64,000 nt of DNA from an uncultured Isosphaeraceae bacterium (GTDB lineage: Bacteria > Planctomycetota > Planctomycetia > Isosphaerales > Isosphaeraceae): NCBI GenBank assembly GCA_945957605.1, contig CAMFLR010000001.1:1054001-1118000 (forward strand). The letters run 5' to 3'. The stretch's first letter is position 1, and each line of letters begins with the position of its first letter. Both the position numbers and the translations under genes were made by a program. This document shows positions 31,610-41,779 of the stretch, one piece after another. Under the pieces are notes generated by a model. That model ran no database searches. It worked only from the letters and a program-made list of their open reading frames with translations, and was not told the DNA's origin.

Positions 31610-33214
31610 TCAATGATTCAGGGCGAATTCGCTCGAATTGAGCAAGACCCACAAGATATCGATGTAAGCAGCGCGTAGATTTTGCGGCTCTGATTTCAAG
31701 AATGCCCTGAGCTTCGCCATTTCCGCCTGGCTCGGACGGCGTGAGAGCGTCGCGAAGTAGAGACGTTCGACGCCCTGTTCAGGAGGCAACTTCGCGTCGA
31801 TCAACTCGTCAACAATCTTCGCGTTGCGATTCATCGGCGACGAGTTCATAAGCTGCAACACTTGCGGAATACCCGTCGTGTATTCGGTTGTATCGGCACC
31901 GTCGGGAACGTCGAAAAACTCGATAAACTTGGCGCGAGAGAAGGTCACTTCCGCCTTCTTGCCGCCCTTCCGCTCCCGCCCCTCGCGAAGTGTACCCAGC
32001 ACGGTCGCGAGCGAGTCGTAAAGTTGTTCGGGAGTTAACGGCTTTACCGCCATCCGAGCATAGTTTGCGTGATCGCCCGCCGCACTAGATCCACTTGCGC
32101 GTTGATATGCATTGCTGTAGCAGATTCCACGGATCAGCATTTTGAGGTCGAACCCGTTCTCGGCGAATTCCATCGCAAGCTGGTCAAACAATTCGGGGTG
32201 CGACTTATCGCTCGAGTCAGAGACGTTGTCGACCGGATTCACCAATCCTCTGCCAAAAAACTGCGACCACGTACGATTCACCATCGCCTTCGCGAAGAAT
32301 GGATTCGCACGCGTCGTCAACCAGGCCGCCAGCACCGGCCGATACGGCTCGTTTCTCTTTATTGTTGGCCGGTCGCCGCCCAGGAATTTTGGCGCGAGCT
32401 TGAGGGCCGAGTCGGGGTCGGGCGCCTTCTTGCCCAATCCATCCTCGTTCACCGATTCGACGCCGTTCTTGGCAATGCCGACCTTTTTCCCACCCGCACG
32501 AACTTTGGAAAAGAACGCAGCTGTGCTCCAGTAATCGTCGCGTTTCCACGACGCGAACGGATGATCGTGACACTGGGCACATTGAAGTTGCACGCCCATG
32601 AATAGTCGCGTCACCTGGTCTGTCAACTTCTCGGGAGTTCGTAGCGCGATGTAGAACGTCGCCGCGCCGTTTTCTTCTTGCGTTCCAGTCACGGTGAGCA
32701 GGTCGCGCACCATTTCATCCCATCGCTGGTTCTTGTTGAATCGCTCGGCAAGCCAGTCGTAAAACGGCTGACTTTTGAGCCGCTTGTTCGTCGAGTCGCG
32801 AAGCATCAGCAGGTTTTCCCACTGGTCGGCGAGATGCTCGCCGAACTTCGGACTGGCGACCAATTCGTCGATCACCTTGGACCGCTTGTTAGGGTCGGTG
32901 CTCGCGAGAAAACCGGCGACCTTCTCGACCGGCGGAATGACACCCGTCAAATCGAGATAGACTCGTCGCAGAAACTCACCATCGTCCGCGCGACCGGCAG
33001 GTGTAACCTTGTCGCGAACGAGCTGGGCGTCGATCTGGCGGTCGATGAGGTTGGCGATAAGTTGAGCGCGCGGGCCGTTAGCAGTTGTAGATTTGGGCGA
33101 ATCGTCCTTCCGCGTGCGATCGGCAGCGAAGCCGACCTGGCTAATCTCGCCGAGAATCAGCACAAAAGCGGCGGTGAACGCGATCGCGCCGCCGGATCGA
33201 CCTGCTCTGGCCAT
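31610..33214 (-). CDS. DUF1549 and DUF1553 domain protein
   Basis: A 534-residue exported planctomycete protein. After a signal peptide (MARAGRSGGAIAFTAAFVLILGE) the DUF1549 domain shows YLDLTGVIPPVEKVAGFL and QLQCAQCHDHPF, whose CAQCH could bind a heme or be a Cys-rich relic; the DUF1553 domain shows NRTWSQFFGRGLVNPVDN, FDLKMLIRGICYSNAYQ and, near the end, a hallmark (LNSSEFALNH). It forms an operon with the DUF1501 gene downstream. GAGGGGGG precedes the ATG at 33214. Role unknown; surface processing together with DUF1501 is inference. Confidence 0.95.
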   Translation of the reverse strand: MARAGRSGGAIAFTAAFVLILGEISQVGFAADRTRKDDSPKSTTANGPRAQLIANLIDRQIDAQLVRDKVTPAGRADDGEFLRRVYLDLTGVIPPVEKVAGFLASTDPNKRSKVIDELVASPKFGEHLADQWENLLMLRDSTNKRLKSQPFYDWLAERFNKNQRWDEMVRDLLTVTGTQEENGAATFYIALRTPEKLTDQVTRLFMGVQLQCAQCHDHPFASWKRDDYWSTAAFFSKVRAGGKKVGIAKNGVESVNEDGLGKKAPDPDSALKLAPKFLGGDRPTIKRNEPYRPVLAAWLTTRANPFFAKAMVNRTWSQFFGRGLVNPVDNVSDSSDKSHPELFDQLAMEFAENGFDLKMLIRGICYSNAYQRASGSSAAGDHANYARMAVKPLTPEQLYDSLATVLGTLREGRERKGGKKAEVTFSRAKFIEFFDVPDGADTTEYTTGIPQVLQLMNSSPMNRNAKIVDELIDAKLPPEQGVERLYFATLSRRPSQAEMAKLRAFLKSEPQNLRAAYIDILWVLLNSSEFALNH

Positions 33215-33313
33215 TCGCAAGCCCCCCTCACTCAACACACTCGATCGCCCTGGAACGATTTAACCCCGGCTTACCCTGGTTGGTTTCGCGCACTGTGCAT
33301 TCCGTCGTATCAC

Positions 33314-34284: not shown

Positions 34285-36150
34285 TTACTTGGTGAAGTTC
34301 AGCCCAGGTGCGGGCGAGTTATCGCCGATCGCGCGGAAGGTGATGTGGTTGGCGTCGTCCCAGCCCACCCGGCCGACGATCGGCGGCATGTTTTCAGGAA
34401 CGAGCGTCAGGATTCCGTTCGCGAACGTCGACGTACCAGTGAACTGGCGCGATTGATCCTTCGCCTTGAGATCCCAGGTGAACGTTCCGTCCGGCTTGAT
34501 TGCCATGTTCACGTTTGTGTCGGCACTCGGCTTGGCGTTCCAGGCTCCATTGATCGTCGCGCCTTGCGGCACGGTGGTGTTCATCGGAACGGTCGTCGTC
34601 GAGGTCGGGTTGAGCGCATTCGGCGGTTGGTTCGGCGCCGGCGGTTGCTGGTTTCCCGCGGGAGCTTGACCGCCGAGCTGTTGCAGCAATGCGTTCGCAA
34701 CTGCGTCGGTCGGCTTGAGTGCGACCACTTCCTTGAGCTGGCGAATCGCCGAGTCGTTGAAGCCTTCCGTCAGGTACTGATAGGCCAGCACGAAGCGGCT
34801 CGACGATGACTGCGGGTGAGACGTCGTGTAGGCCTCGAGGCTTCGAAGTTGCGACGTGTAGACGCTCGGGTCGCCGTACAGGCCGATCAGCGTGGGCCAA
34901 TCCCAGCCGGGGCCGGCGGCGAGCACTGCATAGAGCGGCACGGCTGCGTCGTCATAGCGGCCCATCGCGAAAAGCGTGAGGGCGCGGAACTCGTGGAGCG
35001 ACGTATCGTTCGGCGATTGCGCAAGCGCGGCGTCGGCTCCTTGAAGTGCGAGCGGATAGTTGCCCGCGGTGAACGCGTCGCGAGCCTGGACAAACAAGGT
35101 GTTCGAGTCGTTTGCCGGGGCTACTGCGGTATCGGTTGCGACCGTGGCGATCGGCTGGCTGTAGTCATACGGCAAAGTCGAATAGCCGGTCGTGACGTAC
35201 GGGTTCACATACGACGAGTAGCCGTAGCTCGACCCGTAACCGTAACTGGGATAACCCCACGACGAGTAACCGCCATAGCCCCCATATCCGCCGTAACCGC
35301 CATAGCCACCATACCCGCCGTAACCGCCATAACCGCCGTAGCCAAAGCCACCACCAAGGCCCAGCCCGAGAAGCAAGCCCAGCGGGAAGCCGTAGCCCCC
35401 ATAACCAAAGCCGCCATAACCCAGACCGTAGCCGAGGCCGCCATAACCGAGGCCATAGCCCAGGCCGCGATAGCCGTAACCACCGTACCCGTAGCCCCTT
35501 CCGTATCCGCCGTATCCCCCGTACCCGCCGTAGCTGTGGCGATAGTTCCCATTTCCACCTCGATTGAAGTTCGTCCGGTTGATGTTGTTATTGATATTGG
35601 TAACGCGGTTGCCGCCAATGAATCCCTGATTGCCGAACGAGCGGTTGTTGATGCCGCCGAACTGGCCACGATTCACCGCGGTGTGGTTCACAGCCGTCAG
35701 GCCGCGATTGCCACCGAATGCTCCCGAGTTGCCAAACGAACGATTTGCGACGTTATTCATCGGCGCACGTGCGGCGAATCCTCCGCGACCTGCGACGCCG
35801 GCACCACCAATGTGCGTCGGCCCCATCGCGCGAGCGGCGCCGACACCGCCTCGCGACGCAAAACCGCGCGACGACATCGCTGGTGCACGCATGGCCGGCG
35901 CTCTCATTGCGGGAGCACGCATGGCCGGGGCGCGCATTGCGGGTGCATGCACGGCGCCGCCGCGGAATCCACCTCCGCCACCACGGAAGCCGCCGCCACC
36001 GCCGACATGACCACCGCCCATATGCCCGCCGCCGCCGTGTCCGCCACCTCCGTGACCACCACCGCCGCCGCGTGCGAAGACCGGAGCCACGCCGGCCGTC
36101 ATGGCCAGAATCGCGCCCGCGGTCAAAAGAGACATGAAGTTGCGACGCAT
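34285..36150 (-). CDS. Secreted Gly/Tyr-rich protein with TPR repeats
   Basis: A 621-residue exported protein built as a mosaic. A signal peptide (MRRNFMSLLTAGAILAMTAG, cleaved near VFA-RG) is followed by a Gly/His tract (GGGGHGGGGHMGGGHVGGGG), five copies of the pentapeptide MRAPA, an Asn/Gly-rich part (NRSFGN repeats), and a Gly/Tyr tract of GYGG repeats. Then come TPR-like repeats (TLFVQARDAFTAGNYPLALQ, HEFRALTLFAMGRYDDAA) and a final beta-rich domain about 100 residues long starting at GAWNAKPSADTNV. The ATG at 36150 gives the signal; the frame is open 122 codons further but is not signal-like. A role in the envelope or extracellular matrix is inferred from composition; the end domain may bind a ligand. 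Confidence 0.8.
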   Translation of the reverse strand: MRRNFMSLLTAGAILAMTAGVAPVFARGGGGGHGGGGHGGGGHMGGGHVGGGGGFRGGGGGFRGGAVHAPAMRAPAMRAPAMRAPAMRAPAMSSRGFASRGGVGAARAMGPTHIGGAGVAGRGGFAARAPMNNVANRSFGNSGAFGGNRGLTAVNHTAVNRGQFGGINNRSFGNQGFIGGNRVTNINNNINRTNFNRGGNGNYRHSYGGYGGYGGYGRGYGYGGYGYRGLGYGLGYGGLGYGLGYGGFGYGGYGFPLGLLLGLGLGGGFGYGGYGGYGGYGGYGGYGGYGGYGGYSSWGYPSYGYGSSYGYSSYVNPYVTTGYSTLPYDYSQPIATVATDTAVAPANDSNTLFVQARDAFTAGNYPLALQGADAALAQSPNDTSLHEFRALTLFAMGRYDDAAVPLYAVLAAGPGWDWPTLIGLYGDPSVYTSQLRSLEAYTTSHPQSSSSRFVLAYQYLTEGFNDSAIRQLKEVVALKPTDAVANALLQQLGGQAPAGNQQPPAPNQPPNALNPTSTTTVPMNTTVPQGATINGAWNAKPSADTNVNMAIKPDGTFTWDLKAKDQSRQFTGTSTFANGILTLVPENMPPIVGRVGWDDANHITFRAIGDNSPAPGLNFTK

Positions 36151-36809
36151 GTTGACCTCTCTCTGGGTTGAATCAACCCGTTCTATCTCATAGCTCGCCC
36201 CTCCGATCCGGGGCGGGAGTCGATTCTCCGCGCCATCCGGCCTCGTCTTACCATTCTTCGAGGCCCGGACCAGATTTGTGCGAGCGCTTTGCCAGATATC
36301 ACTTTGCGAGCAATTCTCATTCCCTCTTAAGCGACTGATGTTCAGTTTATCTAACACCGGTAAGCGTAATTGTGTCGGTCGAAGTTGCGCTTGCTCGCAC
36401 TCCAGTTTAGCTCGTCCCACAATCAGGTCGCTAAAACCGCAAATCAATCGTCCCGAAATCGCTGGACAAATTCTGTCTCCATGCAGAATTGAAACTCCAA
36501 GATAAGGCGAGAACAATGTCGAGCCTTACGGTGAGCGGCAAACCGATGAAGCGTTTCGTTACCTTTGTTTCCTCGCTATTCAAACTTTTACAAAGAGCAT
36601 GCATCCTCATAAGCACTCGGTGGGTGAGAATCGCGCGGGAAAAGGACGACTCTGAACTCCGGTCAACATCGCTGGGAAAATGAAACGCAAAGCCGTCGAA
36701 ATTTTGTGGCGTCTCGCCTTCGCACCGATTAGCGTGCACGTCGCCTGACGTAATTAAGCTGAATCGAACTGAAGTTCCCTAATCATGCGTCCCGTTGCCG
36801 AGGCAACTT
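36151..36809. other. Divergent intergenic region (659 bp)
   Basis: The longest gene-free stretch in the window, between the Gly/Tyr-rich gene (minus) and the RoxA-like cytochrome gene (plus). The codon pattern and composition look non-coding: there are only short frames without ribosome sites, and it is more AT-rich than its surroundings. It must carry both promoters; no convincing -35/-10 pair stands out. No tRNA-like or known RNA motif was found. Confidence 0.45.
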
Positions 36810-38762
36810 ATGAATCCGGCGCCCCGTACTTCCGGCTTGGCTCGACTCGTTTGCTGGCTGGCGATTTGCCTTTCGTTTCTGACGCTTGCTGGCGCAATCA
36901 CATTAGCGGTTTACGAACACTCTCTCCCTAAACCAACGTGGTTCCAATCAAATCAGGCCGTTTTTGTTGCAGGAAACATCGGAACTGAGTTCATCCCACT
37001 GCCCGTTCTTGAAGTGCTTCCCAAGATCTTTCCCGAACGCTTTCCGCCCACCGAGGAAGATAAGGTCACGGGCGCACTCAAAGGTGGCTGGATCGCTCGC
37101 TACGGATTTCTCGAGCGCCGCGGAGCCGACGAGCCAACCTTCCCTCGCAGCGAAAGCGAGTTGGCCGGTTTGCTGAAATCGAGCGAGCTTCATCGCAAGT
37201 TTCCAGTTGGTTTCACGTTCTCGAACTATCGCCCCTTCACGCCCGACCCATCGCCCGTGACATTCGTCGGCCTCGCATGCGCGGGCTGTCATTCGAATCG
37301 AATGCCGAACTGGGGGCCGGGCGGAAAACTGATCTATGGCGCCGGGAATACGCGGCTCGACTTGATCGGCTTCTTCGAATCCTTCCGCGCCACGCTTCTC
37401 GAAAAAGAACCAATCCCCGGCCTGACCGCCAATCAAACGAAAAACTATTCGCTTATCGAAGGGCCAGATCTTACGCCTCAGCAGCAACAATATCGGCTCA
37501 CGATGGCAAGCATCGCGCAGGCGCGAGTCGATCTCAAGCTGCCTCCCATGAACTTCGCCGAAGAAAAGATGGTCGCCGTCTGGCTGAGTGGAGCGCACGC
37601 CGCGGCCGAACGAACCGCAGTGCGCGACGACCTCCCCGCCGATATGAGTCAACTGATGACTCCCGAATACAACCCGGTCGGCCCCGGCCGCACCGAGCCG
37701 TTTGTGACGCTCGACCACGAAATGTTCGACCTGCCGGCGAAGCACAACTTCGGCTATTCCAAGATTCCCGCCGTGTTTCGCGAGAAGTACCGCGAGTGGG
37801 CACAATTCGACGGCAGCGTGAAATTCCCTCGAACCAGGTCGGGACTCGCCGCGATGACGGCCGGCGGTTCGGTTGACAACCTGAGCGGTCTGGGCGTCGC
37901 GCGCAACATCCTCGCCGCAGCGACTTACACCGTCGACGACCTCGTCGGTCCAACATGGAACGACATCTTCCCGCCGGGATCGAAGCCAACGACGCCAAGT
38001 CCATCGGACCTCGATCCGACCGATCGCGAGGGCATCGCTCTCACGTCTCGCCAGCGTGAAGGGCGTGCTGTCTATCGCAAACAATGTGCAAGTTGTCACG
38101 GCCAGCCCGACCCAACGGATCCCGCCCGCTGGCAAACCGACACGGCAAAATTCCCCGAGTTCGGCAAAATCGTGCCAACGGTCGATCCCTTTCAGTTCGA
38201 CACGTCAAAATGGCCCGATTACTGGTACAAATTCCGCACGCGTGACGAGTGGCAGAAGCAAACCGTCGACCCCGAACGCGTCGTTTTTCGCGACGGCAGC
38301 CGTATCCCGTTCGTGCTTTTCACCTATTTCGATCGCGCCTATCCGCAAAAAATCACTGGCGAGTATTTTCCGCTCCAGCACCCGCTCGCGACCGACCGGC
38401 AGCATATTCGCAACTCGGGCGGCTACATCAACGGCCCGCTCGACTCGCTCTTCGTTCGAGCGCCCTATCTACACAACGCAAGCATTCCGACACTTGAACA
38501 ACTTCTTAACCTTCAGGATCGTCCTGCGACGTTCCTTCGCGGACTCAACGATTACGATCGCGACGCCGTCGGCCTCAAGGCACCAACGACCGCTCCCGAA
38601 ACCATCAAGCTCGACGATCCGCTCTTCTGGCTCTTCGACACGCGTCCCAAGGGAAATCACAACACCGGACATAATTACCCTTGGACGCGCGAAGAAATGA
38701 AGGCAAGCTCCGATTTCCAGGCACAAACACGTGCGTTGCTGGAATATCTCAAAACGTTTTGA
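36810..38762 (+). CDS. RoxA-like di-heme c-type cytochrome / peroxidase family
   Basis: A 650-residue protein with an N-terminal hydrophobic segment (about residues 10-33) that exports or anchors it. It carries two heme c motifs, CAGCH (157-161) and CASCH (426-430), about 270 residues apart, and the segment APYLHNASIPTLEQLL (551-566) typical of the cytochrome c peroxidase / MauG / RoxA superfamily. Length and heme spacing fit rubber-oxygenase-like RoxA proteins rather than the 330-residue CcpA peroxidases. Reaction unknown: peroxide reduction or oxidative cleavage are the candidates. GAGG lies 6 nt before the ATG. It heads a three-gene same-strand cassette with a membrane protein and a membrane ATPase. 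Confidence 0.82.
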   Translation: MNPAPRTSGLARLVCWLAICLSFLTLAGAITLAVYEHSLPKPTWFQSNQAVFVAGNIGTEFIPLPVLEVLPKIFPERFPPTEEDKVTGALKGGWIARYGFLERRGADEPTFPRSESELAGLLKSSELHRKFPVGFTFSNYRPFTPDPSPVTFVGLACAGCHSNRMPNWGPGGKLIYGAGNTRLDLIGFFESFRATLLEKEPIPGLTANQTKNYSLIEGPDLTPQQQQYRLTMASIAQARVDLKLPPMNFAEEKMVAVWLSGAHAAAERTAVRDDLPADMSQLMTPEYNPVGPGRTEPFVTLDHEMFDLPAKHNFGYSKIPAVFREKYREWAQFDGSVKFPRTRSGLAAMTAGGSVDNLSGLGVARNILAAATYTVDDLVGPTWNDIFPPGSKPTTPSPSDLDPTDREGIALTSRQREGRAVYRKQCASCHGQPDPTDPARWQTDTAKFPEFGKIVPTVDPFQFDTSKWPDYWYKFRTRDEWQKQTVDPERVVFRDGSRIPFVLFTYFDRAYPQKITGEYFPLQHPLATDRQHIRNSGGYINGPLDSLFVRAPYLHNASIPTLEQLLNLQDRPATFLRGLNDYDRDAVGLKAPTTAPETIKLDDPLFWLFDTRPKGNHNTGHNYPWTREEMKASSDFQAQTRALLEYLKTF

Positions 38763-38827
38763 CGATCTGCTTGCCAGTCGGGCATAACCTAATCGCTAAC
38801 TTCATTTACCCGTCGGAGCGTGCGTTC

Positions 38828-39505
38828 ATGTCAGCGGAATTTCTCGCGCCGCCGCCGAATCGAGCGCCGGTCACGCTCGTCCAATTTACATGGACTTTTG
38901 TGCCATTTGCTTTGCTGGTGGCCACCGCGCTCATTTATGCGGAGCTATCGCAAAACCTCAGGCTTTTCCGGACAATTTACCTGATTCGCGCGTCGCTAGT
39001 GCTCTCGGCACCAGCACTGGCTTTGCTACCGTTCTTGCATCACGGCGCAGCCGCACGCAATCTCTGGCGGCTCTTCTGGACGTTCGGCCTACTCGCGCAT
39101 CTCGCCCACCTCGCCTACGCGGTCTTCTTCGTGTTTGGCGACCAGGTCGACACTGCGCGAATTCACTCCGACCTTTATGGCCTGAGTAAAGACAACGTCT
39201 CGATCTACAGCATGATCGTCGAACAACAAACAGCGCCAGTCGTTTGGGGCAATATCGCCGCGACGGTCGTTTGGCTAGTCGACGTACTACTCGGCTGGTT
39301 CGGCAATTATGAGAGTCGCAAGGTCGCGATTTTTCACTGGTTCACGTGGTTGGCGGTGCTTGTCGCGTTTCTGATCAGCACGGTTTACTTCTACAAGAAT
39401 CCCGTCTCCTACAACCTCGGAATTGGCCTGGCTGCGGTGGTCGCGCTCGGCCTCGTGGTGCGTCTCTTCTGGCGTGCTCCAGCGTCAAACACCTCGGCCA
39501 ATTGA
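38828..39505 (+). CDS. Multi-pass membrane protein in RoxA-like cassette
   Basis: A 225-residue integral membrane protein with about six helices (around 17-40, 48-70, 79-104, 133-156, 167-187, 193-214). The loop between helices 3 and 4 is polar (QVDTARIHSDLYGLSKDNVS). A few histidines near membrane boundaries (FLHHGAAA, LAHLAHLAY) could bind heme or metal; this is inference. The ATG at 38828 has GGAG about 9 nt upstream. It lies 65 bp after the RoxA-like gene and 15 bp before the ATPase gene. I do not recognise the family. Confidence 0.7.
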   Translation: MSAEFLAPPPNRAPVTLVQFTWTFVPFALLVATALIYAELSQNLRLFRTIYLIRASLVLSAPALALLPFLHHGAAARNLWRLFWTFGLLAHLAHLAYAVFFVFGDQVDTARIHSDLYGLSKDNVSIYSMIVEQQTAPVVWGNIAATVVWLVDVLLGWFGNYESRKVAIFHWFTWLAVLVAFLISTVYFYKNPVSYNLGIGLAAVVALGLVVRLFWRAPASNTSAN

Positions 39506-39520
39506 TAGGAAATCCCCCCA

Positions 39521-40693
39521 ATGAGCCAGAACTCGAACGACCCGCTTGCCAGTCCCAAGCCTCCCGGCATTGGCGATGTCATTAGCCAGCTAAAACGAGA
39601 CCTGTTCGGTAAAGATGTCGAAAACGCGGCGACCTACACCTACGGTTGGCTGGCCGACCAGGTGGGGCACTTTTCGCTCGGCTTCGTCGGCACGCTGATG
39701 CTGACGTGGTTAGTCGGAAGCTGCCTCACACCCTCTCTGTTCACATGCGGTTGGTTCTGGGCCGGGGCGATTTGCCTGCTGTTCGTTGGCATCGAAACGG
39801 CCGACTTCATCTGGCAACTCCGCGAATACAACGCTTCGAGTAAAACATTCAAGTTCAATGGGTTTGAAGTGCTGGGCAATTGCTTCATCGCGGTCTACTA
39901 CATTGCGATCGGCGCAGTCGTCGCAGCCTTCGGTACGCAACATCCGCTGTGCGGTGTCATCGCGTTTCTGGTGGGTGCTGTTTTCTTTGCCGTTCCGGCT
40001 GTGGGCTGGCTCGAGCAGAAGATCCGCTTCCAGCAAGCGGGATTGCCGATCTACTATCGCCTGGCGTTTTTCAAGAACGACATCACGCCCGACAACGCCA
40101 AGTTCATCGCCGACCTCAGCCATCCCGAGTGCGGAACTCCCACGCCCAGCACCGCCCGGCATTTGATCATCGCCGGCCCGCTCTCCTCGGGCAAAAGCAC
40201 GCTGGCCGCGGCAATCGGCACCGAGTTCGCCGTGCGTGGCAAACAGGGCATTGGCCGCTACATGACGTTTGCCAAACTCGTGCAAACCGTCGTGGCGGAA
40301 GCGACGGGTGATGACGGCGTCGCTGATGAAGGCCGGATTCTTTGGCCGTGGCAAACGTCCGACATGCTGATTGTCGATGATGTCGACGTGATCACTCAGC
40401 ACACAACGATCGATCACCCCGAGACGATCGACGAGGTGAGCATCGCCCACTCGCGTGCGAATGTGATCATCAAACTGATTCCGCCGGAGATTCGCGATCA
40501 TTTGAAATACCGTCGCACGATCTGGGTGATCGGCAACGTCGACGATGGTCAGCTCGACCGCTGGAAGCAGGTGATCGGCAACGTCATCGAGATCGACTAC
40601 AAGACGATCAACGTCTGCAAATTCAAGCAGCCGATTCACAAGCTCGACAAGGATCGGCCCAGGCCGGAAGCCGCACAACGGGCGAAGCTGTAA
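39521..40693 (+). CDS. Membrane-anchored P-loop ATPase (AAA+, IstB/DnaC-like core)
   Basis: A 390-residue protein with an unusual layout. Residues about 45-165 hold about four membrane helices. A cytoplasmic ATPase domain follows: Walker A GPLSSGKST (219-227), Walker B MLIVDDVD (282-289), sensor-like TIWVIGNVDD (333-342). The core order (RYMTFAKLVQTVV, then WPWQTSDMLIVDDVD) resembles IstB/DnaC-like AAA+ proteins by eye. An ATPase fused to membrane helices suggests an energised membrane or assembly role rather than DNA replication. It starts with AGGAAA before the ATG, 15 bp after the membrane protein, so the two are translated together. Function unknown. Confidence 0.75.
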   Translation: MSQNSNDPLASPKPPGIGDVISQLKRDLFGKDVENAATYTYGWLADQVGHFSLGFVGTLMLTWLVGSCLTPSLFTCGWFWAGAICLLFVGIETADFIWQLREYNASSKTFKFNGFEVLGNCFIAVYYIAIGAVVAAFGTQHPLCGVIAFLVGAVFFAVPAVGWLEQKIRFQQAGLPIYYRLAFFKNDITPDNAKFIADLSHPECGTPTPSTARHLIIAGPLSSGKSTLAAAIGTEFAVRGKQGIGRYMTFAKLVQTVVAEATGDDGVADEGRILWPWQTSDMLIVDDVDVITQHTTIDHPETIDEVSIAHSRANVIIKLIPPEIRDHLKYRRTIWVIGNVDDGQLDRWKQVIGNVIEIDYKTINVCKFKQPIHKLDKDRPRPEAAQRAKL

Positions 40694-40696
40694 GCG

Positions 40697-41713
40697 TCAC
40701 GATTTCGGCTCGACCGGAAGCGCGAGCATTAGCGCGGCAGTGGACCAGCCCGTCGCGGCGATCGAGATGAACTGGTCCTTGCCGTGCGGAAACCCGGTCT
40801 CGAAGTATTTCTGAACGATCACCTTCGTACGGCTCTTCACATACCAGGTGCCGTCGGGCTTCTGCGTTTTGAGCAAGAAAGCGATGCCCTTACGATAAGC
40901 CGGATCGTCGGTGCCTATTCCACCCGCCTGTGCGAGCGCAACCAGCACAGTGCCGGTCGCGTACGCGTCAGATTCCATCCCTTCGTCGAGCTGAGCCCAG
41001 CCGCCGTCGGCTCGTTGAGCCTTGACCAATGTCTCTGCGGCGATTTTTAGCTCTTCTGGAGTCGCGCCAGCGGCATGCAATCCACGAAGCCGGAAGACGC
41101 GATCCTCAGTTTCGCGGCCAGGATGATCGAGCAGCCATTTTTTGGCGCCTGCGATCAGTTTCTCCGATTTTTCGCGCTCAGACGCTGGTGCGTACGCTTT
41201 GAGACCGCGGATTGCGACGTAAGTCGACGTAAAGTCGCTCCCTTCGGACGGAACGCGATTCGATGAAGCCCGCCAGTGGTCACCGTTCGCCGGGCTTTTG
41301 AGCAGAAACGCAATCGCCGCGGCCGTTGTTTCGTTCGCCGGCCGTTTGCCGAGATCGAGCGTCATCAGCGAGTAACCAACTGTCGTCACCCCGCCGCCAA
41401 TCGGCTTCCCCTGCTTCAGCACTTCCGCCCCGCGCTTGAGTTGGGCTTCGGCAAGATCGAGACTCTCAGCAACCTCGGCGGCATCGAACTCAAATCCACG
41501 ATCCTTGCCCAGAGTCGCCACGATCGTTCCCATCGCATGATGATGGCACGAGAAGCAATCCCGTTGCCCCGAATGGCCACGGATGCCGGCCTCCATCGGC
41601 GGAATCGCTCGTCGAATCGCGGCGCGAATCGTGTCGGGCGATGGTTCTTCGGCCGCGAAACCAGAGGACGTTACCAGCACCAGCGCGAGCGTGGAAAGAC
41701 TTCTCGTGAGCAT
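40697..41713 (-). CDS. Secreted c-heme protein with terpene-cyclase-like toroid
   Basis: A 338-residue exported protein. After a signal peptide (cleaved near GFA-AEE) a heme c motif CFSCH (53-57) is followed by His58 and His59. The rest looks like an alpha/alpha toroid of the prenyltransferase / squalene-hopene-cyclase repeat type: QRADGGWAQLDEGMESDAYA and QKPDGTWYVKSR are QW-type motifs. No DxDD cyclase motif is evident, so cyclase activity is unlikely. A heme near the toroid suggests an electron-transfer or redox-linked scaffold; this is inference. GAGG lies before the ATG at 41713. It lies downstream of the DUF442 gene on the same strand. Confidence 0.78.
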   Translation of the reverse strand: MLTRSLSTLALVLVTSSGFAAEEPSPDTIRAAIRRAIPPMEAGIRGHSGQRDCFSCHHHAMGTIVATLGKDRGFEFDAAEVAESLDLAEAQLKRGAEVLKQGKPIGGGVTTVGYSLMTLDLGKRPANETTAAAIAFLLKSPANGDHWRASSNRVPSEGSDFTSTYVAIRGLKAYAPASEREKSEKLIAGAKKWLLDHPGRETEDRVFRLRGLHAAGATPEELKIAAETLVKAQRADGGWAQLDEGMESDAYATGTVLVALAQAGGIGTDDPAYRKGIAFLLKTQKPDGTWYVKSRTKVIVQKYFETGFPHGKDQFISIAATGWSTAALMLALPVEPKS

Positions 41714-41779
41714 GGAAAACGCCTCGGAGGGGGTGCAGCGCAAGCCGAGATCCGCTCTATTGACGCCGAACCAGCCCCG

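What the first reader, a model, noticed from the sequence alone, without database searches (positions are those of the whole stretch)
36810..40693. Cassette of RoxA-like di-heme cytochrome, polytopic membrane protein and membrane-anchored AAA+ ATPase
Three same-strand genes (gaps 65 and 15 bp) join a 650-aa exported cytochrome with hemes at CAGCH and CASCH, a 6-TM protein and an ATPase with four membrane helices plus an IstB/DnaC-like P-loop core. An ATPase fused to membrane helices next to a RoxA-like oxidase is not a set I recognise; it could be a membrane redox or maturation system.
Basis: partly seen in the sequence, partly recalled or inferred. Interest (0 to 1): 0.55.

Follow-up and report, generated by a model that had tools for sequence, protein, structure and literature searches.

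The report
Membrane haem enzyme with ATPase operon
A rare three-gene operon in a few planctomycete bacteria joins a two-haem enzyme, possibly one that handles oxidised lipids, to an undescribed membrane partner and a membrane-bound ATPase; the enzyme-partner pair also occurs beside a likely fatty-acid oxygenase in plant-associated Rhizobium.

Summary
CYT (36810-38762, 650 aa, two CxxCH), TM6 (38828-39505, six helices) and ATP (39521-40693, four helices plus an IstB/DnaC-type AAA+ core) form a same-strand unit. The same order recurs in G024 and G033 (gaps -1 to 65 bp). It was found in 3 of 45 family genomes and not in the same-genus G007.

A relative on Rhizobium phaseoli plasmids splits the set. 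CYT and TM6 are adjacent there, without ATP, just downstream of a catalase-like/fatty-acid alpha-dioxygenase fusion. TM6 was seen only beside CYT (4 distinct loci). ATP relatives also occur in four genomes where no CYT was detected, and one triad copy lacks the Walker-A lysine. So CYT-TM6 looks like the core and ATP an add-on.

CYT carries a RoxA-like signature, but RoxA's dioxygen-holding phenylalanines appear replaced and the inter-haem Trp is Phe (weak alignment). It resembles fatty-acid enzymes PA2077/PA2078 more than rubber oxygenases. Best reading: a membrane-anchored di-haem enzyme for lipid hydroperoxides, with TM6 as membrane subunit and ATP as assembly or regulatory factor. Gene order and conservation are shown; anchoring and topology are predicted; substrate and roles are inferred. 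New variant of a known kind.

The parts
36810..38762 (+). CYT: RoxA-like di-haem cytochrome c, predicted membrane-anchored (650 aa; hydrophobic segment 13-31; CAGCH 157; CASCH 426)
   Evidence: relatives at 69% and 52% in G024 and G033 and about 32-38% on R. phaseoli plasmids
37278..37292 (+). haem-binding motif 1 (CAGCH, residues 157-161)
   Evidence: C157, C160, H161 invariant in the four CYT sequences aligned
38085..38099 (+). haem-binding motif 2 (CASCH, residues 426-430)
   Evidence: C426, C429, H430 invariant in the four CYT sequences aligned
38421..38534 (+). RoxA-like C-terminal motif (PF21419, residues 538-575, GYINGP...APYLHN)
38828..39505 (+). TM6: six-helix membrane protein of a family without a curated model (225 aa), seen only beside CYT here
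   Evidence: no Pfam or NCBIfam match at cut-off
39521..40693 (+). ATP: four membrane helices plus IstB/DnaC/DnaA-type AAA+ core (390 aa)
40175..40198 (+). Walker A, GPLSSGKS (residues 219-226)
   Evidence: lysine intact here and in G024, Arg in G033
40367..40387 (+). Walker B, LIVDDVD (residues 283-289)
   Evidence: sequence; I284, D286, D287 invariant in the 7 relatives aligned

Best explanation
CYT and TM6 form a periplasm-facing, membrane-anchored di-haem oxidoreductase of the RoxA-like/fatty-acid cytochrome c peroxidase group. It most likely reduces, isomerises or otherwise processes hydroperoxides of membrane or free fatty acids, made by a fatty-acid oxygenase or by oxidative damage. TM6 is its membrane subunit: it holds the enzyme at the bilayer and shapes substrate access or electron supply. 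In the planctomycete version a third protein, ATP, sits in the same membrane with its AAA+ core in the cytosol and helps assemble, remodel or regulate the complex, as AAA+ chaperones do for other metalloenzymes (analogy recalled). Shown: gene order, conservation, haem motifs. Predicted: membrane topology, AAA+ fold. Inferred: lipid hydroperoxide substrate, TM6 as subunit, ATP as assembly or regulatory factor.
For: Conserved operon in 3 planctomycete loci: CYT-TM6 gaps 65, 18, 45 bp; TM6-ATP gaps 15, 31, -1 bp, the last a TGATG stop/start overlap. CYT-TM6 pair kept on R. phaseoli plasmids: CYT 32% over 93% in 10 near-identical records; TM6 34% identity, hhalign probability 99, gap 16 bp; by coordinates TM6 follows CYT in all 10 of these records. 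There, 10 bp upstream of CYT, lies a fusion of a catalase-like domain and a part closest to plant fatty-acid alpha-dioxygenase (4kvj, E 2.2e-99; Pfam). Of ten CYT-group plasmid loci read, five have a lipid-linked neighbour: this one; P. yeei, with a COX-2-like protein; S. fredii NGR234 and CCBAU 25509, with an annotated patatin-like gene (one kind of locus); B. barranii, with annotated oleate hydratase about 3 kb upstream. The position of RoxA F301 is Gln in CYT, as PMC4496055 reports for the fatty-acid enzymes PA2077 and PA2078 (passages). ATP core matches DnaC/IstB/DnaA: DnaC E 6.5e-10; Z 12-13, rmsd 3.4-3.9 over 153-172 residues for the DnaA and DnaC rows.
Against: No fatty-acid oxygenase was recognised among eight genes examined around the window's operon, and the R. 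phaseoli fusion protein finds nothing in the window by tblastn; the rest of the genome was not searched for one. Of the ten plasmid loci read, four show no lipid-linked gene by annotation and one only a P450; several hold hypothetical genes that I did not examine. Apart from R. phaseoli these proteins match CYT over 17-58% of its length. The P. yeei 'catalase family' protein had no match in solved structures at 1e-5 or in Pfam at 0.001. NF040606 rang in none of 14 control genomes (names not shown), so a link of that family to the P. aeruginosa enzymes was not seen here. The RoxA residue mapping rests on a stretch scoring -1.1 bits, anchored on DGS. ATP's Walker-A lysine is Arg in G033, so ATP hydrolysis may not be needed.
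Confidence: 0.4

Rival explanations
1. A RoxA-type oxygenase that cleaves isoprenoids or rubber-like polymers outside the cell, with TM6 and ATP helping secretion.
For: PF21419 RoxA-like motif above its cut-off; two CxxCH; size near the RoxA chain (650 against 662 residues).
Against: RoxA/B/C models score 25-38 bits against cut-offs of 900-1000. RoxA F301 and W302 align to Q332 and F333, and F317 to A348 if the ungapped stretch is extended by one residue (-1.1 bits). PMC6797691 passages report F317 and F301 as important for holding dioxygen.
Confidence: 0.12
2. A di-haem enzyme that removes hydrogen peroxide or oxidises a protein or small molecule (classical CCP or MauG-like), with TM6 delivering electrons from the quinone pool or cytosol.
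For: Closest curated family is NF040606 di-haem-cytochrome C peroxidase (111.3 bits). TM6's best structural neighbours are the transmembrane parts of STEAP and NADPH oxidases (Z up to 11.8, rmsd 4.3 over 158 residues).
Against: CYT does not reach the NF040606 cut-off of 150. Only one His (H94) is invariant in the four TM6 sequences, so no conserved bis-His haem site. For helical bundles such Z values can be chance (tool note). The inter-haem Trp of RoxA aligns to Phe (weak).
Confidence: 0.28
3. The ATPase is unrelated to the redox pair and merely sits downstream; the three-gene unit is a chance neighbourhood carried on an accessory island.
For: ATP relatives occur in four genomes with no CYT detected; the R. 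phaseoli pair has no ATP beside it; the cassette is not found in the same-genus genome G007.
Against: ATP is third in line in 3 of 3 planctomycete loci with the pair, down to 23% identity, with a 1-bp overlap in G033.
Confidence: 0.15

Closest known systems
P. aeruginosa PA2077/PA2078 oleate 10S-dioxygenase and diol synthase (FadCcp; PMC4496055: outline with abstract, passages and section 21 read)
   Same: Large RoxA-like di-haem cytochrome c peroxidase with two CxxCH; Gln reported at the RoxA F301 position; lipid-linked genes recur beside part of CYT's group.
   Different: The parts of the paper that I read mention no membrane partner or ATPase; CYT has a predicted membrane anchor; inter-haem residue is Phe (Trp in PA2077, Ser in PA2078 per that paper). 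No sequence comparison with PA2077/PA2078 was run here.
RoxA/RoxB rubber oxygenases (4b2n)
   Same: C-terminal GY..PL....APY.HN.S.P motif, two c-haems, similar length.
   Different: Equivalog scores far below cut-off; F301, W302 and F317 appear replaced (weak alignment); no partner genes of this kind known to me (recalled).
NF040606 di-haem-cytochrome C peroxidase subfamily
   Same: Best curated match of CYT (111.3 bits); its R. phaseoli relative passes the cut-off (163.7 against 150).
   Different: CYT itself stays below the cut-off; the two small neighbours of other plasmid relatives that I translated (NGR234 and B11) do not look like TM6 by eye; the remaining neighbours were judged by annotation only.
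IstB / DnaC / DnaI helicase-loader type AAA+ ATPases
   Same: P-loop, Walker B, fold of the AAA+ core.
   Different: Fused to a four-helix membrane domain with its own conserved residues (G30, D32, Y41, W43, Q47, H50, G54); no transposase or replication gene beside it.
STEAP / NOX transmembrane domains
   Same: Six-helix arrangement of the TM6 model resembles them.
   Different: No conserved pair of His; no flavin domain; similarity may be chance.

Membership tests
RoxA/RoxB rubber oxygenase | two CxxCH haem motifs | tested here: met
RoxA/RoxB rubber oxygenase | RoxA-like C-terminal motif | tested here: met
   PF21419 41.2 bits, cut-off 26.7
RoxA/RoxB rubber oxygenase | curated full-length model score (NF050033 RoxA, NF050034 RoxB) | tested here: not met
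   25.3 and 25.8 bits against 1000 and 900
RoxA/RoxB rubber oxygenase | conserved Phe317 (and Phe301) at the distal haem pocket | tested here: inconclusive
   aligned residues A348 and Q332, but the stretch scores only -1.1 bits
NF040606 di-haem-cytochrome C peroxidase | score above curated cut-off 150 | tested here: not met
   111.3 bits; R. phaseoli relative 163.7
Fatty-acid di-haem Ccp (FadCcp) | RoxA-like di-haem protein with Gln at the RoxA F301 position | tested here: inconclusive
   Q332 by the weak alignment; Q332-F333-D334-G335 invariant in the four CYT sequences aligned
Fatty-acid di-haem Ccp (FadCcp) | oxygenation or isomerisation of unsaturated fatty acids | not testable with these tools
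   needs biochemistry
IstB/DnaC-type AAA+ ATPase | Pfam IstB_IS21 gathering score | tested here: not met
   window 16 bits, cut-off 24.1; relatives L038 (G033), L043 and L041 score 26.5, 28.5 and 25.0, while L042, L045 and L046 stay below
IstB/DnaC-type AAA+ ATPase | fold of the AAA+ core and Walker motifs | tested here: met
   (model pLDDT 70.2)
IS21 helper ATPase IstB | adjacent IstA transposase and NF038214 score | tested here: not met
   24.7 bits against 200; neighbours are TM6 and a squalene-cyclase-like repeat protein
STEAP/NOX-type haem membrane domain (TM6) | conserved His pair for haem | tested here: not met
   only H94 invariant in 4 sequences
STEAP/NOX-type haem membrane domain (TM6) | fold | tested here: inconclusive
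   Foldseek best E 0.044; Z 11.8, rmsd 4.3 over 158 residues; model pLDDT 70.5 from 3 sequences
MoxR/NorQ/CoxD-type metalloenzyme chaperones | sequence membership | not tested
   used only as a functional analogy, recalled

The most novel reading that the evidence does not exclude
A previously undescribed three-protein membrane complex in which a cytosolic AAA+ engine, fused to its own membrane domain, drives or gates a di-haem lipid-peroxide enzyme on the other side of the membrane through a new six-helix subunit. It would be an ATP-controlled oxylipin or membrane-repair system.
Probability: 0.2. Interest if true: 0.65.

Novelty: new variant of a known kind. Interest (0 to 1): 0.42.

Why it matters
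RoxA-like di-haem enzymes are known (recalled, and PMC4496055, PMC6797691 and PMC6311187 in part) as proteins acting on rubber or fatty acids. Here one is tied to a membrane protein family without a curated model and, in planctomycetes, to a membrane-bound helicase-loader-type ATPase. The CYT-TM6 pair next to an alpha-dioxygenase-like gene in Rhizobium gives a testable route to the substrate of proteins now named only 'di-heme-cytochrome C peroxidase'. If the ATPase belongs to the complex, it would put an AAA+ fold of the DNA-replication clade to use in membrane redox chemistry.

Tried and rejected
Rubber oxygenase reading: lowered, because model scores and probably key residues do not fit. 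IS21 element: rejected, no transposase beside it and scores far below cut-off. Defence system: only weak PADLOC matches, most to the P-loop part (E 0.0012 or worse). Mobile or phage origin: no ATP match in plasmids, phages or viral contigs; no CYT match in phages; no window-TM6 match in plasmids. TM6 in phages, and CYT and TM6 in viral contigs, were not searched. A guess, recalled, that ATP's membrane domain is VanZ/DUF2279-like: hmmscan of the domain alone in 7 relatives gave no such match, only weak unrelated ones below cut-off (best E 0.0059). Composition: GC of the cassette (about 0.57) is within the range of the window. TM6 profile against solved-structure sequences: no match. STEAP/NOX likeness of TM6: kept only as a lead.

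Literature: searches (10 of 17 listed; 10 of 88; 5 of 6; 6 of 6; 4 of 4; 1 of 1; 8 of 11) listed no paper that by title or start of abstract describes this gene set. Beyond listings I saw parts of three papers: PMC4496055 (outline with abstract, passages, section 21), PMC6797691 (passages) and PMC6311187 (passages).

Limits: the genome search draws samples, so absences in the phylum and Pseudomonadota are not exhaustive. Searches had no positive control in the searched set, and sought only CYT, not TM6. The genome-contig scan used two short peptide patterns. In one search, 34 of 45 genomes matched CYT, but only 3 near full length; the other 31 matched over a C-terminal stretch and I dropped them from the count. 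The single-sequence ATP search found 2 of 45 in the family and missed G033; the profile found 5 of 45, two of them over the AAA core only. The R. phaseoli TM6 was found by looking beside CYT, so that case is not independent of the pairing.
Full report
Observation. Start codons at 36810, 38828 and 39521 each follow a purine-rich stretch (seen directly). The unit is isolated: both neighbours (34285-36324 and 40697-41743) are on the minus strand, and no terminator excess is seen in the region (4 found, mean 5.6 in shuffles).

Conservation. In 45 genomes of the family, near-full-length CYT occurs in 3 (34 of 45 have some match, the other 31 over a C-terminal stretch), TM6 in 3 and full-length ATP in 3 (5 of 45 match, two of them only over the AAA core; the single sequence found 2 of 45). 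These are the same three genomes: the window's own, G024 and G033. The same-genus genome G007 (94% complete) has no TM6, no ATP and only partial CYT matches. Order and strand are kept in all three loci. Gaps are 65/15, 18/31 and 45/-1 bp; in G033 TM6 and ATP overlap as TGATG, which suggests translational coupling. Identities to the window fall in the same order for the three genes: CYT 69 and 52%, TM6 62 and 37%, ATP 55 and 23%. The G024 contig is only 3852 bp and holds little but the triad, so its flanks are unknown. In samples of the phylum, TM6 was found in 1 of 392 genomes, the window's own. ATP as a single sequence was found in 3 of 392 (the window's, G308, and one match to the core only), and as a profile in 6 of 304, full length in 2 (the window's and G308). 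In a Pseudomonadota sample CYT was found in 0 of 378 at E 1e-25 (no positive control) and ATP in 2 of 339 (the centre genome itself and one core-only match).

Taking the set apart. tblastn of CYT in 72,556 plasmids gives 50 records; 10 near-identical Rhizobium records match over 93% at 32% identity. In the R. phaseoli record examined the next gene is a TM6 relative (34% identity, hhalign probability 99). tblastn finds that TM6 in 10 Rhizobium records, and by coordinates it follows CYT in all 10. The gene after it is not ATP but a 454-aa protein without a Pfam match. Conversely, ATP relatives with an alignable membrane domain before the AAA core occur in G308, a Bacteroidota, an Alphaproteobacteria and a Defluviicoccus genome (hydropathy at my threshold marks 1 to 3 helices in that domain), and no CYT was detected in those four. 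The Bacteroidota contig ends just after ATP, so its downstream side is unseen. TM6 was therefore seen only beside CYT, in 4 distinct loci of 4 (three found by independent searches, the R. phaseoli one by looking beside CYT), while ATP is separable.

What CYT is. PF21419 (RoxA-like) passes its cut-off. The nearest curated family is NF040606 di-haem-cytochrome C peroxidase, at 111.3 bits below its cut-off of 150, and the RoxA, RoxB and RoxC models score 25-38 bits. NF040606 rang in 0 of 14 control genomes and twice in the own genome, both below cut-off. The only solved relative by profile is RoxA 4b2n (E 4e-4). In that alignment RoxA F301, W302 and A316 fall on Q332, F333 and A347, so F317 would fall on A348. 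The stretch scores -1.1 bits but is anchored on DGS, and Q332-F333-D334-G335-S336 is invariant in the four CYT sequences aligned. PMC4496055 (passages) reports F301Q for the fatty-acid enzymes PA2077 and PA2078. PMC6797691 (passages) reports that F317 and F301 are important for stable dioxygen binding in RoxA. So CYT fits the fatty-acid branch better than rubber cleavage, on weak residue evidence.

Lipid link. In R. phaseoli, 10 bp upstream of CYT, lies a 942-aa fusion whose C-terminal part is closest to plant fatty-acid alpha-dioxygenase (4kvj, E 2.2e-99) and whose N-terminal part matches Pfam Catalase just over its cut-off (28.1 against 25). Ten CYT-group plasmid loci were read in all, one record each. 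Lipid-linked neighbours are present in five: R. phaseoli; P. yeei, with the cytochrome, an annotated catalase-family protein (no match) and a COX-2-like protein (5kir, E 2.4e-60) in a row; S. fredii NGR234 and CCBAU 25509, with an annotated patatin-like gene (the NGR234 one scores 26.0 against a Pfam cut-off of 27.7); B. barranii, with annotated oleate hydratase about 3 kb away. Against it: the two flavin/GMC loci, Geminocystis and R. ruizarguesonis show none by annotation, and Methylobacterium only a P450; hypothetical genes there were not examined. Apart from R. phaseoli these proteins match CYT over 17-58% of its length, and the choice of records was mine. The window's own neighbours show no fatty-acid oxygenase.

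TM6. No family match at cut-off and none in solved-structure sequences. AlphaFold model pLDDT 70.5 from three sequences, six long helices. The best structural neighbours are STEAP and NOX membrane domains (Foldseek E 0.044; Z 11.8, rmsd 4.3, 158 residues), which for a helical bundle may be chance. Of the histidines only H94 is invariant, so a two-His haem is not supported.

ATP. Four membrane helices, then an AAA+ core (model pLDDT 70.2). Profile search: DnaC E 6.5e-10, IstB 5.5e-8. Structure: DnaA, IstB and DnaC on top (Z 12-13 with rmsd 3.4-3.9 over 153-172 residues for the DnaA and DnaC rows). The membrane domain carries invariant G30, D32, Y41, W43, Q47, H50 and G54 in the 7 relatives aligned and reaches no Pfam cut-off. 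Walker A is intact in the window, G024, L043 and L046; the lysine is Arg in G033 and L041, and L045 keeps the lysine in an altered loop. A role that does not need hydrolysis in all members must stay open.

Mechanism offered. CYT is held at the outer face of the inner membrane by its N-terminal helix and by TM6, takes oxidised lipid from the bilayer and converts it at the N-terminal haem. TM6 shapes access or electron supply. ATP, from the cytosolic side, helps assembly or regulates it. Only the gene set, its operon layout and its conservation are shown; topology and folds are predicted; substrate and roles are inferred, with the lipid link resting on neighbours in other bacteria.

Noticed in passing
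window 40697-41743 (-): Convergent neighbour, ending 3 bp from ATP, has squalene-cyclase-like repeats (PF13243) and a CFSCH haem-type motif (sequence): a possible c-haem protein with a terpene-cyclase-like toroid.
   Followed up: no
window 31610-33238 (-): PSCyt2/PSD1 (DUF1549/DUF1553) protein with a CAQCH motif.
   Followed up: no
L043 3694-6767: In a Bacteroidota contig the ATP relative follows, by 17 bp and on the same strand, a 7TMR-DISM sensor with a SpoIIE domain; the ATP family may have a signalling role there.
   Followed up: partly
L047 3018-9534: R. phaseoli plasmid cluster: catalase-like/alpha-dioxygenase fusion, CYT, TM6 and a 454-aa protein without a Pfam match; CYT and TM6 present in 10 Rhizobium records.
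   Followed up: partly
L050 5014-11249 and L049 5341-11573: Rhizobial clusters with three cytochrome-type genes in near succession between an NADH:flavin oxidoreductase and a GMC oxidoreductase; in L050 the first two match NF040606 (204.7 and 116.9 bits) and the third has two CxxCH.
   Followed up: partly
L040, last 162 bases (G024:C870:9119-9280): A second N-terminal fragment of CYT (61% to residues 6-59) at a contig end in G024: a possible second copy or the missing end of the triad contig.
   Followed up: no
window 34285-36324 (-): Divergent neighbour is a very Gly/Tyr-rich protein with a TPR region, with long ORFs in other frames that are probably not genes.
   Followed up: no
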